NCBI GenBank assembly: GCA_002699725.1
Contig: PACE01000018.1
Coordinates: forward strand, 1 to 12,050
DNA length: 12,050 nt
Direction: 5' to 3'
Source: Acidimicrobiaceae bacterium
Lineage (GTDB): Bacteria; Actinomycetota; Acidimicrobiia; Acidimicrobiales; MedAcidi-G1
Shown: one piece after another, positions 4,901 through 11,055 of the stretch
Layout: every line of letters starts with the position of its first letter
Numbering within the stretch: the first letter of the stretch is position 1
The notes under the pieces: model-generated
Database searches by the model: none
What the model was told of the DNA's origin: nothing
What the model saw: only the letters and a program-made list of their open reading frames with translations
Translations under genes and position numbers: made by a program

Positions 4901-6074
4901 AGGACAACCAATCCAGGCAGCCGCGTAGGGTGCGCACCGCCTGGGTGATCCGTTGCTCGTTCTCTATGAGGGCAAAGCGGACGTAGCCCTCCCCGCCCGG
5001 TCCAAAGCCGACGCCCGGCGAGACGGCGACATCGGCCTCCCGCACCAGGTGGCTGGCGAACTCGACGGAGCCCATCCCCAGGTAGGGCTCGGGGATTGGC
5101 GCCCACACGAACATGCTTCCCCTTGGCGGCTCGACGGACCAGCCGATGCGCTCGAGTCCCGAACACAGCGCATTGCGCCTGGCCTCATAGATGGCGCATA
5201 CCTCCCGTGGATGCTCCGGCGCCTCGTTGAGCGCGACCGTTGCTGCAATCTGGATCGGCTGGAAGGTCCCGTAGTCGAGGTATGACTTGAGCTTCGCCAG
5301 GGCTGCGATGGTCGGCGCATGACCGACCATGAACGCCACGCGCCAGCCCGCCATCGAGTAACTCTTCGTCATCGAATACAACTCGACCGCTACCTCGTCC
5401 GCCCCGGGCACCTCGAGGATCGACGGGGGCTGATAACCGTCGAAGCCGAGGTCGGCATAGGCGAAGTCGTGGACCAGGAGCACGTCTCGTTCCCGGGCGA
5501 ACTCGACGACCTCGGTCATGAAGTCGAGGTCCACGCACGCCGTCGTCGGATTGTGGGGAAACGACAGAACGACCACCCGGGGCTTCGGCCAGGAGTACTC
5601 CCACCCGTCCCGCAGCGCACCGATGAAGTCGCCGTCGGTCGTGAACGGCATCTCACGGACGTCGGCGCCGGCGAGCAGCGGCGAATAGCGGTGGATGGGG
5701 TACGACGGTGACGGCACCAGTGCCGCATCGCCGGGCTGGAGCATCACCCACATGAGGTGGGAAAAGCCTTCCTTTGCACCGATCGTCTGAATGACCTGCG
5801 TCTCGGGATCGAGGGTCACGCCGAACCGCCGTTCGTAGAGGTCGGCGGCGGCCTGCCGGAGTTTCGGGATGCCGCGGCTGGACGAATAGCGGTGGTTCCG
5901 CGGGTTGCGGGCGGCCTCGGCCAACTTGTCGACCGCCACGTCCGGGGAGGGCAGGTCGGGGTTGCCGAATCCGAGGTCGACGACATCCCTGCCGGCCCGT
6001 CGTGCCTCGACCTTCAGCGTGTCAATGACCGTAAAGACGTAGGGCGGAAGTGCAGTGATGCGCCGGTACTCCAT
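4899..6074 (-). CDS. alaC: PLP-dependent class I aminotransferase, AlaC-like
   Basis: This 391-residue fold-type I aminotransferase resembles E. coli AlaC (glutamate-pyruvate transaminase), as I recall it, over nearly the whole length. Examples are LPPYVFTVIDTLK near the N-terminus, HRYSSSRGIPKLR (61-73), PSPSYPIHRY (121-130), the YGTFQPIQIAA segment (268-278) and VSPGVGFG...VRFALIEN (351-372). PLP-site residues are visible: N175 in FPHNPT, D203 and Y206 in VHDFAYAD, the Schiff-base lysine K237 in SMTKSYSMAGWR, and the carboxylate-binding R366. The expected reaction is alanine plus 2-oxoglutarate to pyruvate plus glutamate, linking nitrogen to glycolysis; relatives include LL-diaminopimelate aminotransferases, so substrate is not certain. 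The ATG at 6074 matches the usual N-terminus of the family, though no obvious Shine-Dalgarno precedes it. It lies 47 bases after the SRPBCC gene and 12 bases before pfkA. Confidence 0.92.
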   Translation of the reverse strand: MEYRRITALPPYVFTVIDTLKVEARRAGRDVVDLGFGNPDLPSPDVAVDKLAEAARNPRNHRYSSSRGIPKLRQAAADLYERRFGVTLDPETQVIQTIGAKEGFSHLMWVMLQPGDAALVPSPSYPIHRYSPLLAGADVREMPFTTDGDFIGALRDGWEYSWPKPRVVVLSFPHNPTTACVDLDFMTEVVEFARERDVLLVHDFAYADLGFDGYQPPSILEVPGADEVAVELYSMTKSYSMAGWRVAFMVGHAPTIAALAKLKSYLDYGTFQPIQIAATVALNEAPEHPREVCAIYEARRNALCSGLERIGWSVEPPRGSMFVWAPIPEPYLGMGSVEFASHLVREADVAVSPGVGFGPGGEGYVRFALIENEQRITQAVRTLRGCLDWLS

Positions 6075-6121
6075 CGGCGACGAGCGTAGCGGGACTCCTG
6101 CGTTGCCTTTAGGAGAAGTCC

Positions 6122-6613
6122 CTACCCACGGGTGATCGGGGAAATAGGGGGGGCTGCCAGACTCTCGATGTGACCCTTGAGGTCGTCGATCGCTGCGTGG
6201 ACGATCTTGGCCTCGAGGCGTCGCTTCACGAAGCCTGGCAGGCGGACGATAAGGTCGACGTCGAGGTCGTAGTGGACCTGCGTAGCGTTGGGATCACCGT
6301 CGACGGCGACGAACTCGTATTCGCCGCTCATGCGACGCATCACGTCGCCCTCGATCAGGCGCCAGGAGATGCGCAGCGGGTTGGATCCATAGGTGTAGCG
6401 CAGCGTGTAACTACTGCTGCGGCCCATCGCCGCCGCCCGAAACTGCACGTCGCCAACCCTGCCCTCGTCATCGCGGGCGAGGACGCTGGCCTCCTTGATG
6501 TCGACCGCCCATTCGGGGTACCGCTCGACATCGCTCACCGTGGCGAAGCACAGGTCGGGCGGTGCCTGGATGTGCGTGTGTTGACTGGCGTGGTCGCTCA
6601 TCGCCTCCGACAC
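6122..6613 (-). CDS. SRPBCC/START-like (polyketide cyclase/COQ10-type) lipid-binding-fold protein
   Basis: This 163-residue soluble protein has the pattern of the SRPBCC superfamily. The opening is HTHIQAPPDLCFATVSDVERYPEW (about 13-36). Alternating beta strands follow, with the recognisable FRAAAMGRSSSYTLRYTY and ISWRLIEGDVMRRMSGEYEF segments. A long C-terminal helix closes the cup (about 128-153). Such folds bind hydrophobic ligands, but no catalytic residue can be named and the ligand is unknown. M. tuberculosis Rv2185c, near pimB, belongs to the same superfamily, supporting conserved context. The start is uncertain: GTG at 6613, or ATG at 6601 (giving 159 residues) with GGAGG only two bases upstream of that ATG. 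A 123-base gap separates it from pimB; I see no clear promoter or terminator in that gap. Confidence 0.82.
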   Translation of the reverse strand: MSEAMSDHASQHTHIQAPPDLCFATVSDVERYPEWAVDIKEASVLARDDEGRVGDVQFRAAAMGRSSSYTLRYTYGSNPLRISWRLIEGDVMRRMSGEYEFVAVDGDPNATQVHYDLDVDLIVRLPGFVKRRLEAKIVHAAIDDLKGHIESLAAPPISPITRG

Positions 6614-6736
6614 TACCCGAACCCGACCTCCGGGGCGTGGGCATGGCGGGGTTCATCGACAGGGCTCATGGAGCGGGCACCGAAGTGGTCGCCGTTCCCG
6701 CACGACGGTTACGGGTGGGGAGTCGTCCGGCCACCC

Positions 6737-7876
6737 TCACCGTCCGGTGCGGAGTTCGGCGGCGTCGATGCCGACTCGCAACCGGTCGGCCAACACCTCG
6801 TAGGAGAACTCGCGCTCGACCCGCTGCCGCCCGGCCCTCGCCATGGACCTGCGTGCTTCCTCATCGCCCAGCAGGTCACCGATCGCCTCGGCGACGACCT
6901 CCACGTCGGTCGGGTCGTCAACGACGAGCCCGGTCTCTCCGTGCTCGACGGCTTCTGCCGCTCCCCCGCTGCGCCCGGCCACCTGGGGGACGCCCGCCGC
7001 AGCCGCCTCGAGGAAGACGATCCCGAAGCCCTCCTGTTCGAGGCCGGCGAGGCGTGTCCGGCAGAGCATGCCGAAGACGTCGCCGGCCCCGTACAAGCCG
7101 GGCAGGAGGCGCTCCTCGACCCGTCCAAGCAGGATGGCAGGGGCGCCCGTCCTCTCGATGAGCGACTCGAGGCGGGCGTGCTCGCGGCCCGCTCCGGCGA
7201 TCGCCAGGACCACGTCAGGCTCCTTCTCGGCTAGGCGGGTCACGGCCCTGACCAACGTGTCCATTCCCTTCCGGGGGACGAGTCGACTGACGCTGACCAC
7301 CAGGGGGGCGTCGACCGGAAGGCCGAGTTCCCTACGCACCGATGCACGTTCACCGTCGTCGAGGGGAACGAATCGGTCGGTGTCGACGCCCGGCGGAACG
7401 ACGAGGGTCGGGAGCCCGCCCCCTGCCGCCCGCTCAGCCTCGGCTGCCGGATAGCCACCTGCACTGATCACGAGCGATGCACCACGCAACACCCGGCCCA
7501 GCAGTGGGCGCAGGATGGGCAACCTGCCCGGAATCGTGACCTCGGCGCCGTGGAGGACGACGGCGTAGGGCACATCGACCCGTGGAGCGGCCAGGCCGAC
7601 GGGAATCGCCGGGTCCCAGACCACCAGTTCGGCATCCTGTTCCCGGGCGAGGCGGCCGACGCGTCGGGGCAGCCATGGATGGGGAAGCAACCAGGGTTCA
7701 CGAGACCGGGTGACCGCGAATCGCTGCTCGGCGTCGAATGCTGTCGAACCTTTGTGGGGCGTGGTGTGGACCGCCACGTCCTCGGGGGGGAGCCGCCGCC
7801 ACAACTCCCAGAGGTAGGACTGGATGCCCCCCACCTTGGGTGGGAAGTCGTTCGTGACCAGCAGGTGCGACCTCAT
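6737..7876 (-). CDS. pimB: GT4 glycosyltransferase, PimB'-type phosphatidylinositol monomannoside mannosyltransferase
   Basis: This 379-residue GT-B glycosyltransferase has the N-terminal signature LLVTNDFPPKVGGIQSYL (5-22) and VVPPGVDTDRF (159-169). The donor-site segment is VSRLVPRKGMDTL (196-208), with R198 and K203 placed to hold the GDP-mannose phosphates. The E-x7-E motif spans E282-E290 (EGFGIVFLE) and is followed by AGVPQVAGRSGGAAEAV. These segments follow the mycobacterial PimB' (Rv2188c) pattern closely as I remember it. PimB' adds the second mannose to PIM1 using GDP-mannose at the cytoplasmic face of the membrane, making PIM2 for envelope glycolipids and lipoglycans. Length is normal and no membrane helix is seen, consistent with a peripheral enzyme. 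Its ATG overlaps the queG stop by 4 bases, so the two are translationally coupled. A different mannosyl acceptor cannot be excluded. Confidence 0.87.
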   Translation of the reverse strand: MRSHLLVTNDFPPKVGGIQSYLWELWRRLPPEDVAVHTTPHKGSTAFDAEQRFAVTRSREPWLLPHPWLPRRVGRLAREQDAELVVWDPAIPVGLAAPRVDVPYAVVLHGAEVTIPGRLPILRPLLGRVLRGASLVISAGGYPAAEAERAAGGGLPTLVVPPGVDTDRFVPLDDGERASVRRELGLPVDAPLVVSVSRLVPRKGMDTLVRAVTRLAEKEPDVVLAIAGAGREHARLESLIERTGAPAILLGRVEERLLPGLYGAGDVFGMLCRTRLAGLEQEGFGIVFLEAAAAGVPQVAGRSGGAAEAVEHGETGLVVDDPTDVEVVAEAIGDLLGDEEARRSMARAGRQRVEREFSYEVLADRLRVGIDAAELRTGR

Positions 7877-8940
7877 GGCGCTACAAGTTTTCCGGTCGCA
7901 CGTCGGGCCAGCGCCCAGGCTGCGTGCTCGCCAAGCATCGGGTCCGGGGACCCGGCGAAACGCTGAAGGAGGGCGTCGACCAGAGGGTCCTCGTCCGTCG
8001 CGTTGCCGAGGACGACGAGTGCGTTGCGTCGGAGGTAGCGGGGGTCGCGGTCGGCGATGTACCAGCGTCCGAAGCGGTCAAGGAGGTCGGAGTCGGAGGC
8101 CTCCAGTACCCAGATGGCCGGCACGTCGGCTCCGGATGGTGATTCGTGGCCTGCCTCGGAGCGCTCGCCGTGGCCGATCGGGCAGACCTCCTGGCAGTCA
8201 TCGCAGCCGTACAGGCGATCACCGACCGCCTGCCGGAACTCGACCGGAATCGACCCCGGGGCCTGCACCAGCCAGGCCAGGCAGCGGCGCGCATCGACGA
8301 CGCCGGGCTCGACGATGGCACCCGTCGGACAGGCCGACATGCACCGGTCGCAGGTCCCGCAGCCGTCCCGGACCGGCTCGGTGGATGGCGGAAGCGGGGC
8401 GTCGGTGACGACGGAGCCGAGGACGAACCAACTGCCCCTCCCCGGGAGCAGGACGTTGGCGTTCTTGCCATACCAGCCGATCCCGGCCCGGACGGCGGCC
8501 TCGCGGTCGACGAGGGCGTTGTCGTCGGCGACGACCCGGGCCTGCCACCCCTGATCCACCAGAAGCTCCGCCATCTCACGAAGTGCCGCCCGGAGTTCCC
8601 CGTAGTGGTCGTCCCGTGCGTAGGCGGCAACCCTCGCCTCGGACGGTGCCGTGGGCTGGAGCCGGGGCGCCGGGGTATAGAGCGCCCCGACGACCAGGGA
8701 TCGTGCGCCGGACAGCGTGCGTTGGGGGTCGGTGGACCGCTCTGGGTTGCGGTAGGTGAACTGCATGTCGGCAGCGAGCCCCCGGGAACGGCGCTCTTCG
8801 AGGTGGCGACGGGTGGCGAGGAATGGAGAGGCATCGGCGATGCCTACGGCATCGAGTCCTGCCCGACGGCCGAGCGCGCAGACTTCGTCTGCCAGCACCT
8901 CGCAAGCGTCGTTCGATCCCGGCTCCCTGCCCTGCTCCAC
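7873..8940 (-). CDS. queG: Epoxyqueuosine reductase
   Basis: This 355-residue cobalamin/[4Fe-4S] enzyme should convert epoxyqueuosine to queuosine at the wobble base of GUN-anticodon tRNAs, the last step of the pathway. Two ferredoxin-like clusters are visible: C194-x2-C197-x2-C200-x3-C204 (CGTCDRCMSACP) and C246-x2-C249-x3-C253 (CDDCQEVCP), with C220 completing the second set. The RAGIGWYGKN motif (151-160) is typical of the family. The preceding segment is ADDNALVDR, where many QueG proteins have a DTGPxLER-like sequence; the key Asp appears kept (D139) but neighbours differ. A short HEAT-like tail (about 298-350) is present. The start is a GTG at 8940 with no good Shine-Dalgarno; a downstream GTG (residue 15) is an alternative. 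It overlaps pimB by 4 bases, an unexpected partner for tRNA modification. Confidence 0.9.
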   Translation of the reverse strand: MEQGREPGSNDACEVLADEVCALGRRAGLDAVGIADASPFLATRRHLEERRSRGLAADMQFTYRNPERSTDPQRTLSGARSLVVGALYTPAPRLQPTAPSEARVAAYARDDHYGELRAALREMAELLVDQGWQARVVADDNALVDREAAVRAGIGWYGKNANVLLPGRGSWFVLGSVVTDAPLPPSTEPVRDGCGTCDRCMSACPTGAIVEPGVVDARRCLAWLVQAPGSIPVEFRQAVGDRLYGCDDCQEVCPIGHGERSEAGHESPSGADVPAIWVLEASDSDLLDRFGRWYIADRDPRYLRRNALVVLGNATDEDPLVDALLQRFAGSPDPMLGEHAAWALARRATGKLVAP

Positions 8941-9008
8941 GGTGCCATCGTCGCAGGTCTCGTGGCGGACAACGCGCCCGAAGGCGCTCTGACATGGCCT
9001 CGTGGCCT

Positions 9009-9260
9009 TCAGCGGCCCTCGGGAGCGTGTCGTAGCGGTGGAGCCAGGCCGGCGTCGGCGAGTATCCGAAGGCTGCGGTGTTCATCAAGGTCGATCACGA
9101 CGGCCTCGCCGGGGCGACGGCCCAGTAGGAAGGTCACGACGCAATCGTCGCAGGTGGCGGTGTGGCGCTCGCTGCAGGTCTCGCAGTCGACTACCAGGGA
9201 GCCTTCGGAACCGGTCGGGCATGCAGGGGAATTTGGCTCATGGATCGGGGTGTTGGTCAT
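9009..9260 (-). CDS. Small Cys-pair (zinc-ribbon-like) protein, conserved actinobacterial type, function unknown
   Basis: This 83-residue protein has a tidy C-x2-C ... C-x2-C arrangement: C26 and C29 in DCETC, C37 and C40 in TCDDC, with seven residues between the pairs, suitable for one zinc ion. The next part, VVTFLLGRRPGEAVVIDLDE (41-60), and a Leu/Ala-rich helix RSLRILADAGLAPPL (62-76) resemble, from memory, short uncharacterised proteins found widely in actinobacteria with a CxxC...CxDCVVTxLL pattern and an ALRVLADAGL-type ending. An extra C14 lies in the variable N-terminus. The ATG at 9260 is favoured because residues upstream in the same frame are low-complexity antisense of the neighbouring gene; no Shine-Dalgarno is evident, so it may be leaderless. 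It is divergent from the SOS-box gene and sits 68 bases upstream of queG in the same direction. Confidence 0.68.
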   Translation of the reverse strand: MTNTPIHEPNSPACPTGSEGSLVVDCETCSERHTATCDDCVVTFLLGRRPGEAVVIDLDEHRSLRILADAGLAPPLRHAPEGR

Positions 9261-9311
9261 GGCGACATCTTCGCCAGAGGGTGTGACAGTCCCGCCTGCG
9301 AGGAGTGATTT

Positions 9312-9340
9312 CCGCAAGAAGTGCGGGTTTTCCGGACCCG
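9312..9340. repeat. Two overlapping short inverted repeats in the divergent control region
   Basis: CCGCA-AGAAG-TGCGG (9312-9326) and CGGGT-TTTCCGG-ACCCG (9324-9340) are each perfect 5-bp dyads and share three bases, so their hairpins would be mutually exclusive in RNA. They lie just upstream of the -35 of the exonuclease gene, and 52-80 bases upstream of the small Cys-pair gene on the other strand. They may be operator half-sites or leader structure for the minus-strand gene. Arms this short also arise by chance in GC-rich DNA. Confidence 0.35.
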
Positions 9341-9345
9341 AGTAC

Positions 9346-9381
9346 TTGACAGACGAACACCTGTTCGATTCACTGGTGTGC
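9346..9381 (+). promoter_or_regulatory. Predicted promoter of the exonuclease/GIY-YIG gene, possibly leaderless
   Basis: A perfect TTGACA lies at 9346-9351. Seventeen bases downstream is TTCACT (9369-9374), a weak -10 that matches the first, fourth and sixth bases of TATAAT. Initiation about seven bases further on would fall at or beside the ATG at 9382. No Shine-Dalgarno precedes that ATG, consistent with a leaderless transcript, which is common in actinobacteria. The SOS box fills the spacer. Confidence 0.55.
9354..9367. promoter_or_regulatory. SOS box (LexA operator)
   Basis: CGAAC-ACCT-GTTCG is a perfect 5+5 dyad with a 4-base spacer. It matches the Bacillus/actinobacterial LexA site consensus CGAAC-N4-GTTCG, and the wider mycobacterial form TCGAAC-N4-GTTCGA at all but the first base. 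It lies between the -35 and putative -10 of the exonuclease/GIY-YIG gene, the ideal place for repression. The small Cys-pair gene starts 94 bases away on the other strand and could also be affected. Confidence 0.82.
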
Positions 9382-11055
9382 ATGGCAGCCGCTCCACCGG
9401 ACGCACATCCCGCTCCGGTCCAGCGATCGCTCGACGATCTCGGCACGCCGCTGTCGGATGTCACCTTCTGCGTGATCGACCTCGAAACGACGGGGACCGC
9501 TGCCTCGACCTGTGCAATCACCGAGGTCGGGGCCGTCAAGCTCCGGGGAGGGGCCTCCCTTGGCACCTTCCAGACGCTGGTCGATCCGGGCTGCGGGATC
9601 CCACCCCGTATCACCGTGCTGACCGGCATCACGGAGATGATGGTGCACGACGCTCCCCCGATCGAAGCCGTGCTTCCTGCCTTGCTCGAATTCGTCGGCG
9701 ACTCCGTCATCGTCGGCCACAACGTTCGCTTCGACCTCTCCTTCCTCCGAGCGGCCCTCGAGCGATCCGAGCGCCCACCACTCGCCAACCGGTCGATCGA
9801 CACGTGCGCCCTGGCGCGTCGCCTGGTTCGCGACGAGGTCCCCGACTGCAAGCTCGGAACCCTCGCCCGACACTTCCGCCTCGACCATCCACCCAACCAC
9901 CGGGCCCTCGACGACGCTCTCGCCACGGGCGACCTGCTACACCTCCTCCTCGAGCGGGCGGCGACACTCGGGGTCACCGGACTCGACGACCTTCTGGTCC
10001 TGCCGACGATGGCCGGCCACCCCGATGCCGGGAAGTTGGCCCTCACCGACTCCCTCCCCCGGTCGCCGGGCGTCTACCTCTTCCGCGGCCATCGTGGCGA
10101 AGTCCTCTACGTCGGGAAGGCCACCAACCTCCGGGCCCGCGTCCGGAGCTACTTCTCGACCGACGGACGGCGCAAGGTCCGACGACTCCTCCGCGAAACC
10201 CAGCGGATCGAGCACCGGGTGTGCACGAGCCCGCTCGAGGCGGCGGTCTCCGAGATCCGACTCTTCCACCGGCACCAGCCCCGCTACAACAGACAGGGCA
10301 CCGGTGCCGGACGCTACGTCTATCTGAAGCTCACCCTCGGTGAACCATTTCCCCGACTGGCCGTTGCACGAGTGCTCACTGACGACGGTGGGCTCTACGT
10401 CGGGCCGGTTCGCTCCACCTCTTTCGCCCGGCAGGTCATCGCCGCGGTCGAGTCGGTCGTACCTCTGCGGCGCTGCACGGGACGCATTCCGAGGTCGCGT
10501 GCCGCTGCCCCGTGCACGGCGGCGCAACTGGGGGCGGCGGCATGTCCCTGTTCCGGATCGATCGACGAGGCGTCGTACGGCCGCATCGTGGACCTCGCCC
10601 GCCGGGGCCTGACCGACGAGCCCGACCTGCTGCTCCGACCCCTCGCCGAGCGCATGGACCGCCTGGCGGCCGCCGAGCGCTTCGAGGAGGCCGCCGCCGC
10701 CCGGAACAGCGCCGAGGCGCTCGCCACGACGCTGCAACGCCAGCGCAGGATCGGCCTTCTCCGCCGAGCCGGGAGGGTCCGGGTCCGGGTCATCGGCAGC
10801 GGGAGCGCCGAGATCACCCACGGCAGGTTACGACGGACCTGGAGGGACGTCGACCCGGTGCCACCTGATGAACTCGCCTTCGAGAGCGGCGCACCCGTCG
10901 GACCGGTCACCCGCGAGGAGGCGGACGAGTTGAACTGCGTGGCGACCTGGTTCGACCGCGAGGCGCACCGCCTCCAACTGCTCTCCGTCGAGGGCCTGAT
11001 GGCGGAGTCGGTCCGACCGGTCCCATGCTTCACGCCCAGGAGGCCGGCCGCCTGA
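9382..11055 (+). CDS. DEDDh (DnaQ-like) exonuclease fused to UvrC-like GIY-YIG nuclease half with UVR motif
   Basis: This 557-residue two-nuclease protein starts with a DnaQ-type 3'-5' exonuclease (about 26-192): Exo I DLETTG (33-38), Exo II GHNVRFDLSFL with D118, and Exo III H173-x4-D178 (HRALDD), all intact. A GIY-YIG domain like the N-terminal half of UvrC or Cho follows (about 226-305): PGVYLF (229-234), YVGKATNLRARVRSYF (243-258), the catalytic-Glu segment ending at E291, and PRYN with N303. Next come four Cys (C365, C378, C388, C390), then a UVR-like UvrB-binding motif, LAERMDRLAAAERFEEAA (421-438). The UvrC RNase H-like and helix-hairpin-helix domains are absent. The architecture matches M. 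tuberculosis Rv2191 as I recall it. Start choice: the open frame extends far upstream, but only as antisense of queG and the small gene; ATG 9382 fits the promoter and SOS box (GTG 9376 is alternative). A DNA-repair role under LexA is inferred. Confidence 0.9.
   Translation: MAAAPPDAHPAPVQRSLDDLGTPLSDVTFCVIDLETTGTAASTCAITEVGAVKLRGGASLGTFQTLVDPGCGIPPRITVLTGITEMMVHDAPPIEAVLPALLEFVGDSVIVGHNVRFDLSFLRAALERSERPPLANRSIDTCALARRLVRDEVPDCKLGTLARHFRLDHPPNHRALDDALATGDLLHLLLERAATLGVTGLDDLLVLPTMAGHPDAGKLALTDSLPRSPGVYLFRGHRGEVLYVGKATNLRARVRSYFSTDGRRKVRRLLRETQRIEHRVCTSPLEAAVSEIRLFHRHQPRYNRQGTGAGRYVYLKLTLGEPFPRLAVARVLTDDGGLYVGPVRSTSFARQVIAAVESVVPLRRCTGRIPRSRAAAPCTAAQLGAAACPCSGSIDEASYGRIVDLARRGLTDEPDLLLRPLAERMDRLAAAERFEEAAAARNSAEALATTLQRQRRIGLLRRAGRVRVRVIGSGSAEITHGRLRRTWRDVDPVPPDELAFESGAPVGPVTREEADELNCVATWFDREAHRLQLLSVEGLMAESVRPVPCFTPRRPAA

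What the first reader, a model, noticed from the sequence alone, without database searches (positions are those of the whole stretch)
9346..9384. Perfect SOS box inside the promoter of an exonuclease/GIY-YIG fusion gene
CGAAC-ACCT-GTTCG sits three bases after a consensus TTGACA and 14 bases before the ATG. LexA binding here should block RNA polymerase. The encoded protein joins a proofreading-type exonuclease to a UvrC/Cho-like endonuclease. E. coli Cho, a UvrC-like protein lacking the C-terminal half, is SOS-induced, so an independent actinobacterial design with the same logic, plus an added exonuclease, is plausible. The site and spacing are seen directly; regulation is inferred.
Basis: partly seen in the sequence, partly recalled or inferred. 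Interest (0 to 1): 0.75.

Follow-up and report, generated by a model that had tools for sequence, protein, structure and literature searches.

The report
SOS-controlled exonuclease–UvrC-like repair nuclease
The short mirror-image DNA sequence in front of this gene is very probably a real DNA-damage switch: it is kept in front of the same gene in most of the related bacteria examined, and the gene encodes a two-nuclease DNA-repair protein.

Summary
The dyad CGAACACCTGTTCG (9354-9367) is present as described: two bases after TTGACA, 14 bases before the ATG of a 557-aa DEDDh exonuclease–GIY-YIG fusion. From the letters alone it is weak evidence; relatives make it strong. The genome's lexA has two perfect boxes, one the identical 14-mer; the other promoter boxes precede recA, imuA' and dnaE2. 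Of 139 same-class fusion promoters, 125 carry the box with at most one mismatch (about 1.3 expected for the 137). uvrC promoters lack it (0 of 17), as in E. coli, where cho but not uvrC is LexA-controlled. It recurs in other families of the phylum and is missing from one clade of named Actinomycetia, suggesting loss there. The protein architecture is known ('Cho-like+Exo', PMC1564403); I found no report of its SOS control in the open papers searched. Both active sites are invariant in 64 aligned sequences. Best reading: a LexA-repressed, UvrB-linked 'nick and digest' excision nuclease. Binding, induction and activity are untested. Boldest reading: a built-in, SOS-inducible long-patch excision nuclease.

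The parts
9346..9351 (+). -35-like hexamer TTGACA
   Evidence: in 6 genomes of the genus the block around TTGACA and the box is conserved while sequence upstream is not
9354..9367 (+). LexA/SOS box CGAACACCTGTTCG (palindromic, so orientation is arbitrary)
   Evidence: identical 14-mer before lexA; conserved in 125 of 139 class promoters; inner bases follow R..Y in 117 unique class promoters
9369..9374 (+). candidate -10 TTCACT, spacer 17; start codon 7 nt further, so possibly leaderless mRNA
   Evidence: weak match; 45 of 117 class promoters have TTG before and TANNNT after the box, spacer 17 or 18 in 37 of those 45; first in-frame start 6-9 nt after the -10 in 42 of 65
9382..11055 (+). DEDDh exonuclease-GIY-YIG (Cho-like+Exo) fusion protein, 557 aa
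   Evidence: NCBIfam NF005907 548 bits, cut-off 454; AlphaFold2 mean pLDDT 89.7, pTM 0.73
9472..9936 (+). DEDDh 3'-5' exonuclease domain (aa 31-185); D33, E35, D118, H173, D178 invariant
10066..10290 (+). GIY-YIG nuclease domain (aa 229-303); Y232, Y243, G245, R251, E291, N303 invariant
   Evidence: PF01541 29.6 bits, cut-off 22.6; own-genome UvrC 31% identity over fusion aa 224-458
10474..10551 (+). four-cysteine region (C365, C378, C388, C390)
   Evidence: C365, C378, C390 in 98-99 of 100 sequences, C388 in 75 of 100
10630..10722 (+). UVR (UvrB-binding)-like motif (aa 417-447)
   Evidence: PF02151 17.4 bits, below its cut-off 21.5; R433, E435, A437 invariant in 64 sequences

Best explanation
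The box is a LexA operator lying in the spacer of the promoter of a Cho-like+Exo excision nuclease. Without damage, LexA occupies the spacer next to the -35 element and blocks RNA polymerase; RecA-triggered LexA cleavage after damage releases it, together with recA, imuA' and dnaE2. The protein most likely joins a UvrA/UvrB-marked lesion through its UVR-like motif, nicks the damaged strand on the 3' side with the GIY-YIG domain, and then digests from the new 3' end with the DEDDh domain, removing the lesion without UvrC's second (5') incision. Shown by computation: box, conservation, LexA with the same site in its own promoter region, domains and intact catalytic residues. Inferred: LexA binding, repression and induction, UvrB binding, incision side, coupled digestion.
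For: Identical 14-mer before lexA, and a perfect box within 250 nt upstream in 30 of 30 family lexA loci examined, of 47 genomes with a LexA hit. Box with at most 1 mismatch in 123 of 137 same-class promoters (117 perfect) against about 1.3 expected from first-order shuffles and 1 for the backward pattern, plus 2 of 2 added later. In 117 unique class promoters the unselected inner bases follow R..Y (A/G 99%, C/T 100%). uvrC control 0 of 17. Where the divergent neighbour lies over 1 kb away, 12 of 13 loci still have the box at the fusion gene. Both active sites invariant in 64 sequences. UvrA and UvrB found over their cut-offs and a long UvrC found, on one contig. The own UvrC has PF08459 and PF22920 (RNase H-type domains); the fusion has no match to them. 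'Incision, then exonuclease through the lesion' was proposed by an earlier author, as reported in PMC1564403 (passage).
Against: No binding, expression or activity data. Weak -10 in the window. UVR motif below the Pfam cut-off. 14 of 139 same-class promoters lack the box within 150 nt, including G001 in the same family. The gene is dispensable: 24 genomes of three genera in the family (some incomplete) have LexA and no fusion hit. Exonucleases can be blocked by lesions (PMC5521853, passage), which would stall digestion through the lesion.
Confidence: 0.75

Rival explanations
1. Chance dyad: a 10-base palindrome that happens to sit in front of a gene and has no regulatory role.
For: Six of the 12 distinct perfect sites in the genome lie inside open frames, one of them in this window.
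Against: Conserved in 125 of 139 class promoters, with about 1.3 expected for the 137; in the genus the TTGACA-box block is conserved while the flank diverges; the other promoter boxes precede lexA, recA, imuA' and dnaE2.
Confidence: 0.02
2. The box is a LexA operator, but for the divergent 83-aa gene (9009-9260, minus strand) rather than for the fusion gene.
For: The two genes are divergent with about 120 nt between them; the small gene is found near 39 of 115 fusion loci, 38 of them divergent.
Against: In 13 of those 39 loci the small gene lies over 1 kb away, and 12 of the 13 still have the box just upstream of the fusion gene (L085 does not). In the other 76 of 115 loci no homologue was detected within the fetched flank. 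Dual control of both genes is not excluded.
Confidence: 0.05
3. The box is real, but the protein does not do UvrAB-dependent excision; it processes other DNA-damage intermediates (crosslinks, stalled forks, branched DNA), each nuclease domain acting on its own.
For: UVR motif under its cut-off. The exonuclease fold is general: PolC, DinG, DnaQ, ExoX and TREX all match. A cited paper's title says E. coli Cho acts in interstrand crosslink repair (reference list seen; paper not read).
Against: GIY-YIG, Cys region and UVR-like helix align in order with UvrC over 240 columns; R433, E435 and A437 invariant.
Confidence: 0.2

Closest known systems
Cho-like+Exo subfamily of GIY-YIG nucleases (Actinobacteria; NCBIfam PRK07883 models, NF005907)
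   Same: ExoIII/DEDDh N-terminus, GIY-YIG, Cys region, UVR-like motif, no EndoV-type domain found; it fits by architecture, with the UVR motif under its cut-off.
   Different: SOS control is not mentioned in the parts of PMC1564403 that I read; no box in the 12 more distant named relatives scored (0 of 12, one of them with only 29 nt upstream).
E. coli Cho
   Same: UvrC N-terminal-half homologue; LexA control of cho and not of uvrC (PMC3820734, passages), mirrored here.
   Different: Cho has its own C-terminal domain in place of UvrBb and, in E. coli, no exonuclease (PMC1564403); the fusion has a DEDDh domain and a UVR-like motif.
UvrC of the same genome (G000 contig C47)
   Same: 31% identity over fusion aa 224-458.
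   Different: UvrC has PF22920 and PF08459 and no exonuclease match; family uvrC promoters have no box (0 of 17).
PolC-type proofreading exonuclease
   Different: Here it is tethered to an incision-type nuclease, not to a polymerase.

Membership tests
LexA/SOS regulon | LexA encoded in the same genome | tested here: met
   TIGR00498 213.9 bits, cut-off 110.95
LexA/SOS regulon | Operator matches the organism's own LexA site | tested here: met
   Identical 14-mer before lexA; 30 of 30 family lexA loci examined have a perfect box
LexA/SOS regulon | Operator conserved at orthologous promoters | tested here: met
   125 of 139 in the class with at most 1 mismatch; 14 lack it
LexA/SOS regulon | LexA binds and the gene is damage-induced | not testable with these tools
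   Needs gel shift and RT-qPCR
Cho-like+Exo (PMC1564403) | N-terminal exonuclease domain with DEDDh residues | tested here: met
   PF00929 105.6 bits; D33, E35, D118, H173, D178 invariant
Cho-like+Exo (PMC1564403) | GIY-YIG domain with catalytic residues | tested here: met
   PF01541 29.6 bits, cut-off 22.6; Y232, Y243, R251, E291, N303 invariant
Cho-like+Exo (PMC1564403) | Four-Cys region after GIY-YIG | tested here: met
   C365, C378, C390 98-99 of 100, C388 75 of 100
Cho-like+Exo (PMC1564403) | UvrBb (UVR) motif | tested here: inconclusive
   PF02151 17.4 bits, below cut-off 21.5, but core residues invariant
Cho-like+Exo (PMC1564403) | No EndoV/RNase H-type nuclease domain | tested here: met
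   No PF08459 or PF22920 match with E up to 5 (HMMER's filters drop most above 0.1), while own UvrC gives 174 and 104 bits
Cho-like+Exo (PMC1564403) | No HhH domain | not tested
   Not searched for by itself; no HhH family appears in the Pfam list, for own UvrC either
E. coli-type (orthodox) Cho | Cho-specific C-terminal domain in place of UvrBb | tested here: inconclusive
   UVR-like motif present; the Cho C-terminal domain itself was not searched for

The most novel reading that the evidence does not exclude
This is an SOS-inducible long-patch nucleotide excision nuclease in one polypeptide: incision and gap-enlarging exonuclease are fused and switched on together with the error-prone polymerase system (imuA', dnaE2) that could fill the gap. 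In E. [quoted passage not shown] SOS control would be ancestral to the fusion in deep lineages of the phylum and lost in Actinomycetia, so homologues there would be de-wired versions.
Probability: 0.25. Interest if true: 0.75.

Novelty: new variant of a known kind. Interest (0 to 1): 0.5.

Why it matters
It ties a little-studied actinobacterial nuclease fusion to the SOS response, gives it predicted co-induced partners (recA, imuA', dnaE2), and shows the E. coli division of labour (unboxed uvrC, LexA-controlled Cho-like enzyme) in a distant phylum with an added exonuclease. It offers a single protein with which to ask what enlarges excision gaps during SOS, a question described as open in E. 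coli (PMC5521853, passage).

Tried and rejected
Rejected: chance dyad; control of the divergent gene alone; membership of SOS by uvrA, uvrB and uvrC in this genome (no perfect box on their contig C47; two one-mismatch sites in each of the uvrA and uvrB loci, none of the extended form). A 16-base search with two mismatches gave 446 hits against 32 for the backward pattern; only the first were listed, and it was not followed up. Comparing the fusion C-terminus (aa 455-545) with UvrC profiles by hhalign gave nothing (probability 0.1, 11 UvrC sequences), so the predicted strand-strand-strand-helix-strand C-terminus is not shown to be an RNase H remnant; the structure comparison filled up with the exonuclease domain and hardly tested the rest.

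Apparent one-mismatch boxes in 4 of 25 family-f64 genomes lie 5-20 nt upstream of the match start in frames open for 189-321 nt upstream, so they look like coding sequence and are not counted as operators. One search missed minus-strand loci and is superseded. Still dropped, their matches beginning at or near a contig start or without the N-terminus: G039 and G042 (family), G216 and G228 (class), G323 and G426 (phylum). In one search, 46 of the 76 loci were scored; L088, L092 and the loci that match UvrC or exonuclease only were left out (L092 shows 4 mismatches; L088 has 2 nt upstream).

Papers: searches without a hit were LexA + SOS box + Acidimicrob, LexA regulon + Actinobacteria + dnaE2 + imuB, DEDD exonuclease domain-containing, and LexA + uvrC + exonuclease + Streptomyces + ChIP-seq + mitomycin. 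Cho-like + exonuclease + UvrC + actinobacteria gave only PMC1564403; GIY-YIG + DnaQ + UvrC + Cho gave PMC8307549 (passages). Rv2191 gave three papers, of which I read passages of one, where it stands in a STRING neighbour list. Searches (2 papers; 14 papers on LexA comparative genomics) were seen as listings only; of the 8 I read passages of three. The M. tuberculosis LexA regulon and SOS-box papers and the Cho discovery paper are not held, so prior mention there is not excluded.

Full report
OBSERVATION. The window shows TTGACA at 9346-9351, CGAACACCTGTTCG at 9354-9367 and ATG at 9382. The 557-aa product matches NCBIfam NF005907 (548 bits, cut-off 454), PF00929 and PF01541. On sequence alone the site is only mildly unusual: three sites with at most one mismatch against 0.69 expected, and another perfect one at 5822 inside an open frame. 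The -10 is weak (TTCACT), and a sigma-70 scan finds nothing.

THE GENOME'S OWN SOS SYSTEM. The 2.1-Mb draft genome has one LexA hit (TIGR00498, 213.9 bits). Perfect 14-mers fall at 14 places, two of them duplicates on contig C23, against 1 for the pattern read backwards. Six of the 12 distinct places lie in promoter regions: two before lexA (one the identical 14-mer), and one each before recA, imuA', dnaE2 and this gene (names: RecA 558.7 bits; ImuA' 133.4 bits, over the cut-off of 65; error-prone polymerase 540.6 bits on a fragment, below its full-length cut-off of 939). The other six lie in long open frames. In the family, 30 of 30 lexA loci examined, of 47 genomes with a LexA hit, carry a perfect box within 250 nt upstream.

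CONSERVATION. I took the 150 nt upstream of fusion-gene matches. Same family 14 of 15, same order 26 of 34, same class 83 of 88 have a box with at most one mismatch: 123 of 137, 117 of them perfect. First-order shuffles predict about 1.3 and the backward pattern gives 1. Two more, G197 and G223, both perfect, were added on checking: 125 of 139. These promoters come from the fusion hits (128 of 247 class genomes have a hit at E up to 1e-60); rows dropped are listed under Tried and rejected. Among named records, 32 of 34 loci (L046-L079; 24 perfect; many titled Acidimicrobiales or Acidimicrobiia, some only Actinomycetota) have the box, and 0 of 12 more distant loci (L080-L087, L089-L091, L096; L086 with only 29 nt upstream) do; some named records are the same genomes as G handles. 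In 117 unique class promoters the inner bases, which the search did not select, are A/G at 99% and C/T at 100% in the two positions where the Gram-positive SOS box (recalled) has R and Y. In the genus the TTGACA-box block is conserved while the sequence further upstream is not.

OTHER CLASSES. Of 99 promoters from other classes of the phylum, 49 have a box with at most one mismatch (about 1.2 expected, backward pattern 0); 4 of these (family f64) look like coding sequence, leaving 45. Three added genomes all have a perfect box: 48 of 102. With 400 nt one more family, f90, gains a perfect box. Families f54, f59, f60, f62, f63, f66, f77, f84, f89, f91 and f102 have it in most or all members examined (four of these families are one or two genomes); f64, f67, f70, f76, f78, f80, f83, f100 and f103 have no operator-like box. 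In a tree of 98 fusion proteins (82 with the box), 10 box-less rows, among them Actinomadura, Nocardioides, Actinomyces and Pseudokineococcus, form one clade (support 100) next to boxed rows; six changes suffice (0 of 500 shuffles as low), and the root is for drawing only. That these genera are Actinomycetia is recalled. The simplest reading is ancestral control lost in that clade, but a gain elsewhere is not excluded.

WHAT THE BOX CONTROLS. The box often sits between -35-like and -10-like elements: 45 of 117 class promoters have both, with a spacer of 17 or 18 in 37 of those 45. Where a -10 and an in-frame start were both found, the start is 6-9 nt downstream in 42 of 65, as in leaderless transcripts. 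It follows the fusion gene, not the divergent small gene, which is over 1 kb away in 13 of the 39 loci where it was found; 12 of those 13 keep the box. uvrC promoters in the family lack it (0 of 17 usable of 18), and the contig C47 that bears uvrA, uvrB and uvrC has no perfect box. This is the E. coli pattern, where cho but not uvrC is under LexA; there uvrA and uvrB are also under LexA, which is not seen here (PMC3820734, passages).

MECHANISM. LexA in the promoter spacer would exclude RNA polymerase; damage would release it. The product would nick 3' of a UvrAB-bound lesion and digest from the nick. That order of events was proposed earlier for the mycobacterial fusion, as reported in PMC1564403 (passage; the original was not read). 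Binding, induction and both activities are inferred.

KNOWN AND NEW. PMC1564403 (section 8 part 1 read; passages) already defines Cho-like+Exo as the actinobacterial variety with ExoIII, GIY-YIG, Cys region and UvrBb. I found no report of LexA control of it in the searches listed, in an open-licence library only; key LexA-regulon papers were not held. PMC5521853 (passages) says the enzymes that enlarge excision gaps in E. coli are unknown and cites a paper titled as long-patch repair under rec-lex control; this fusion is a candidate for such an activity in its own lineage, not evidence about E. coli.

LIMITS. The gene is not essential to having LexA: 24 genomes of genera g3, g4 and g5, some incomplete, have LexA and no fusion hit. 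G001, in the same family, lacks the box.

Noticed in passing
9009-9260 (minus strand): Divergent 83-aa Cys-rich ORF (CETC..CDDC) with no Pfam or NCBIfam hit, conserved near 39 of 115 fusion loci, 38 of them divergent.
   Followed up: partly
window 5822-9367 and G000 contig C23:28726-32271: The window's region recurs on contig C23 with two dyads at the same spacing and a near-identical fusion gene, probably redundant assembly.
   Followed up: no
L061, L063, L064, L070 upstream regions: Some relatives appear to carry two SOS-like dyads flanking or overlapping TTGACA, so LexA may bind twice at this promoter.
   Followed up: partly
L357, L363, L364, L369 lexA upstream regions: lexA promoter regions in part of the family carry up to four boxes with at most one mismatch, several spaced 15 nt apart.
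   Followed up: no
G249 contigs C50 and C53: One same-class genome has two fusion genes, both with a perfect box upstream (L207, L220).
   Followed up: no
aa 465-536 of the fusion protein: Predicted C-terminal strand-strand-strand-helix-strand unit of unknown relation; no match to UvrC by profile comparison.
   Followed up: partly
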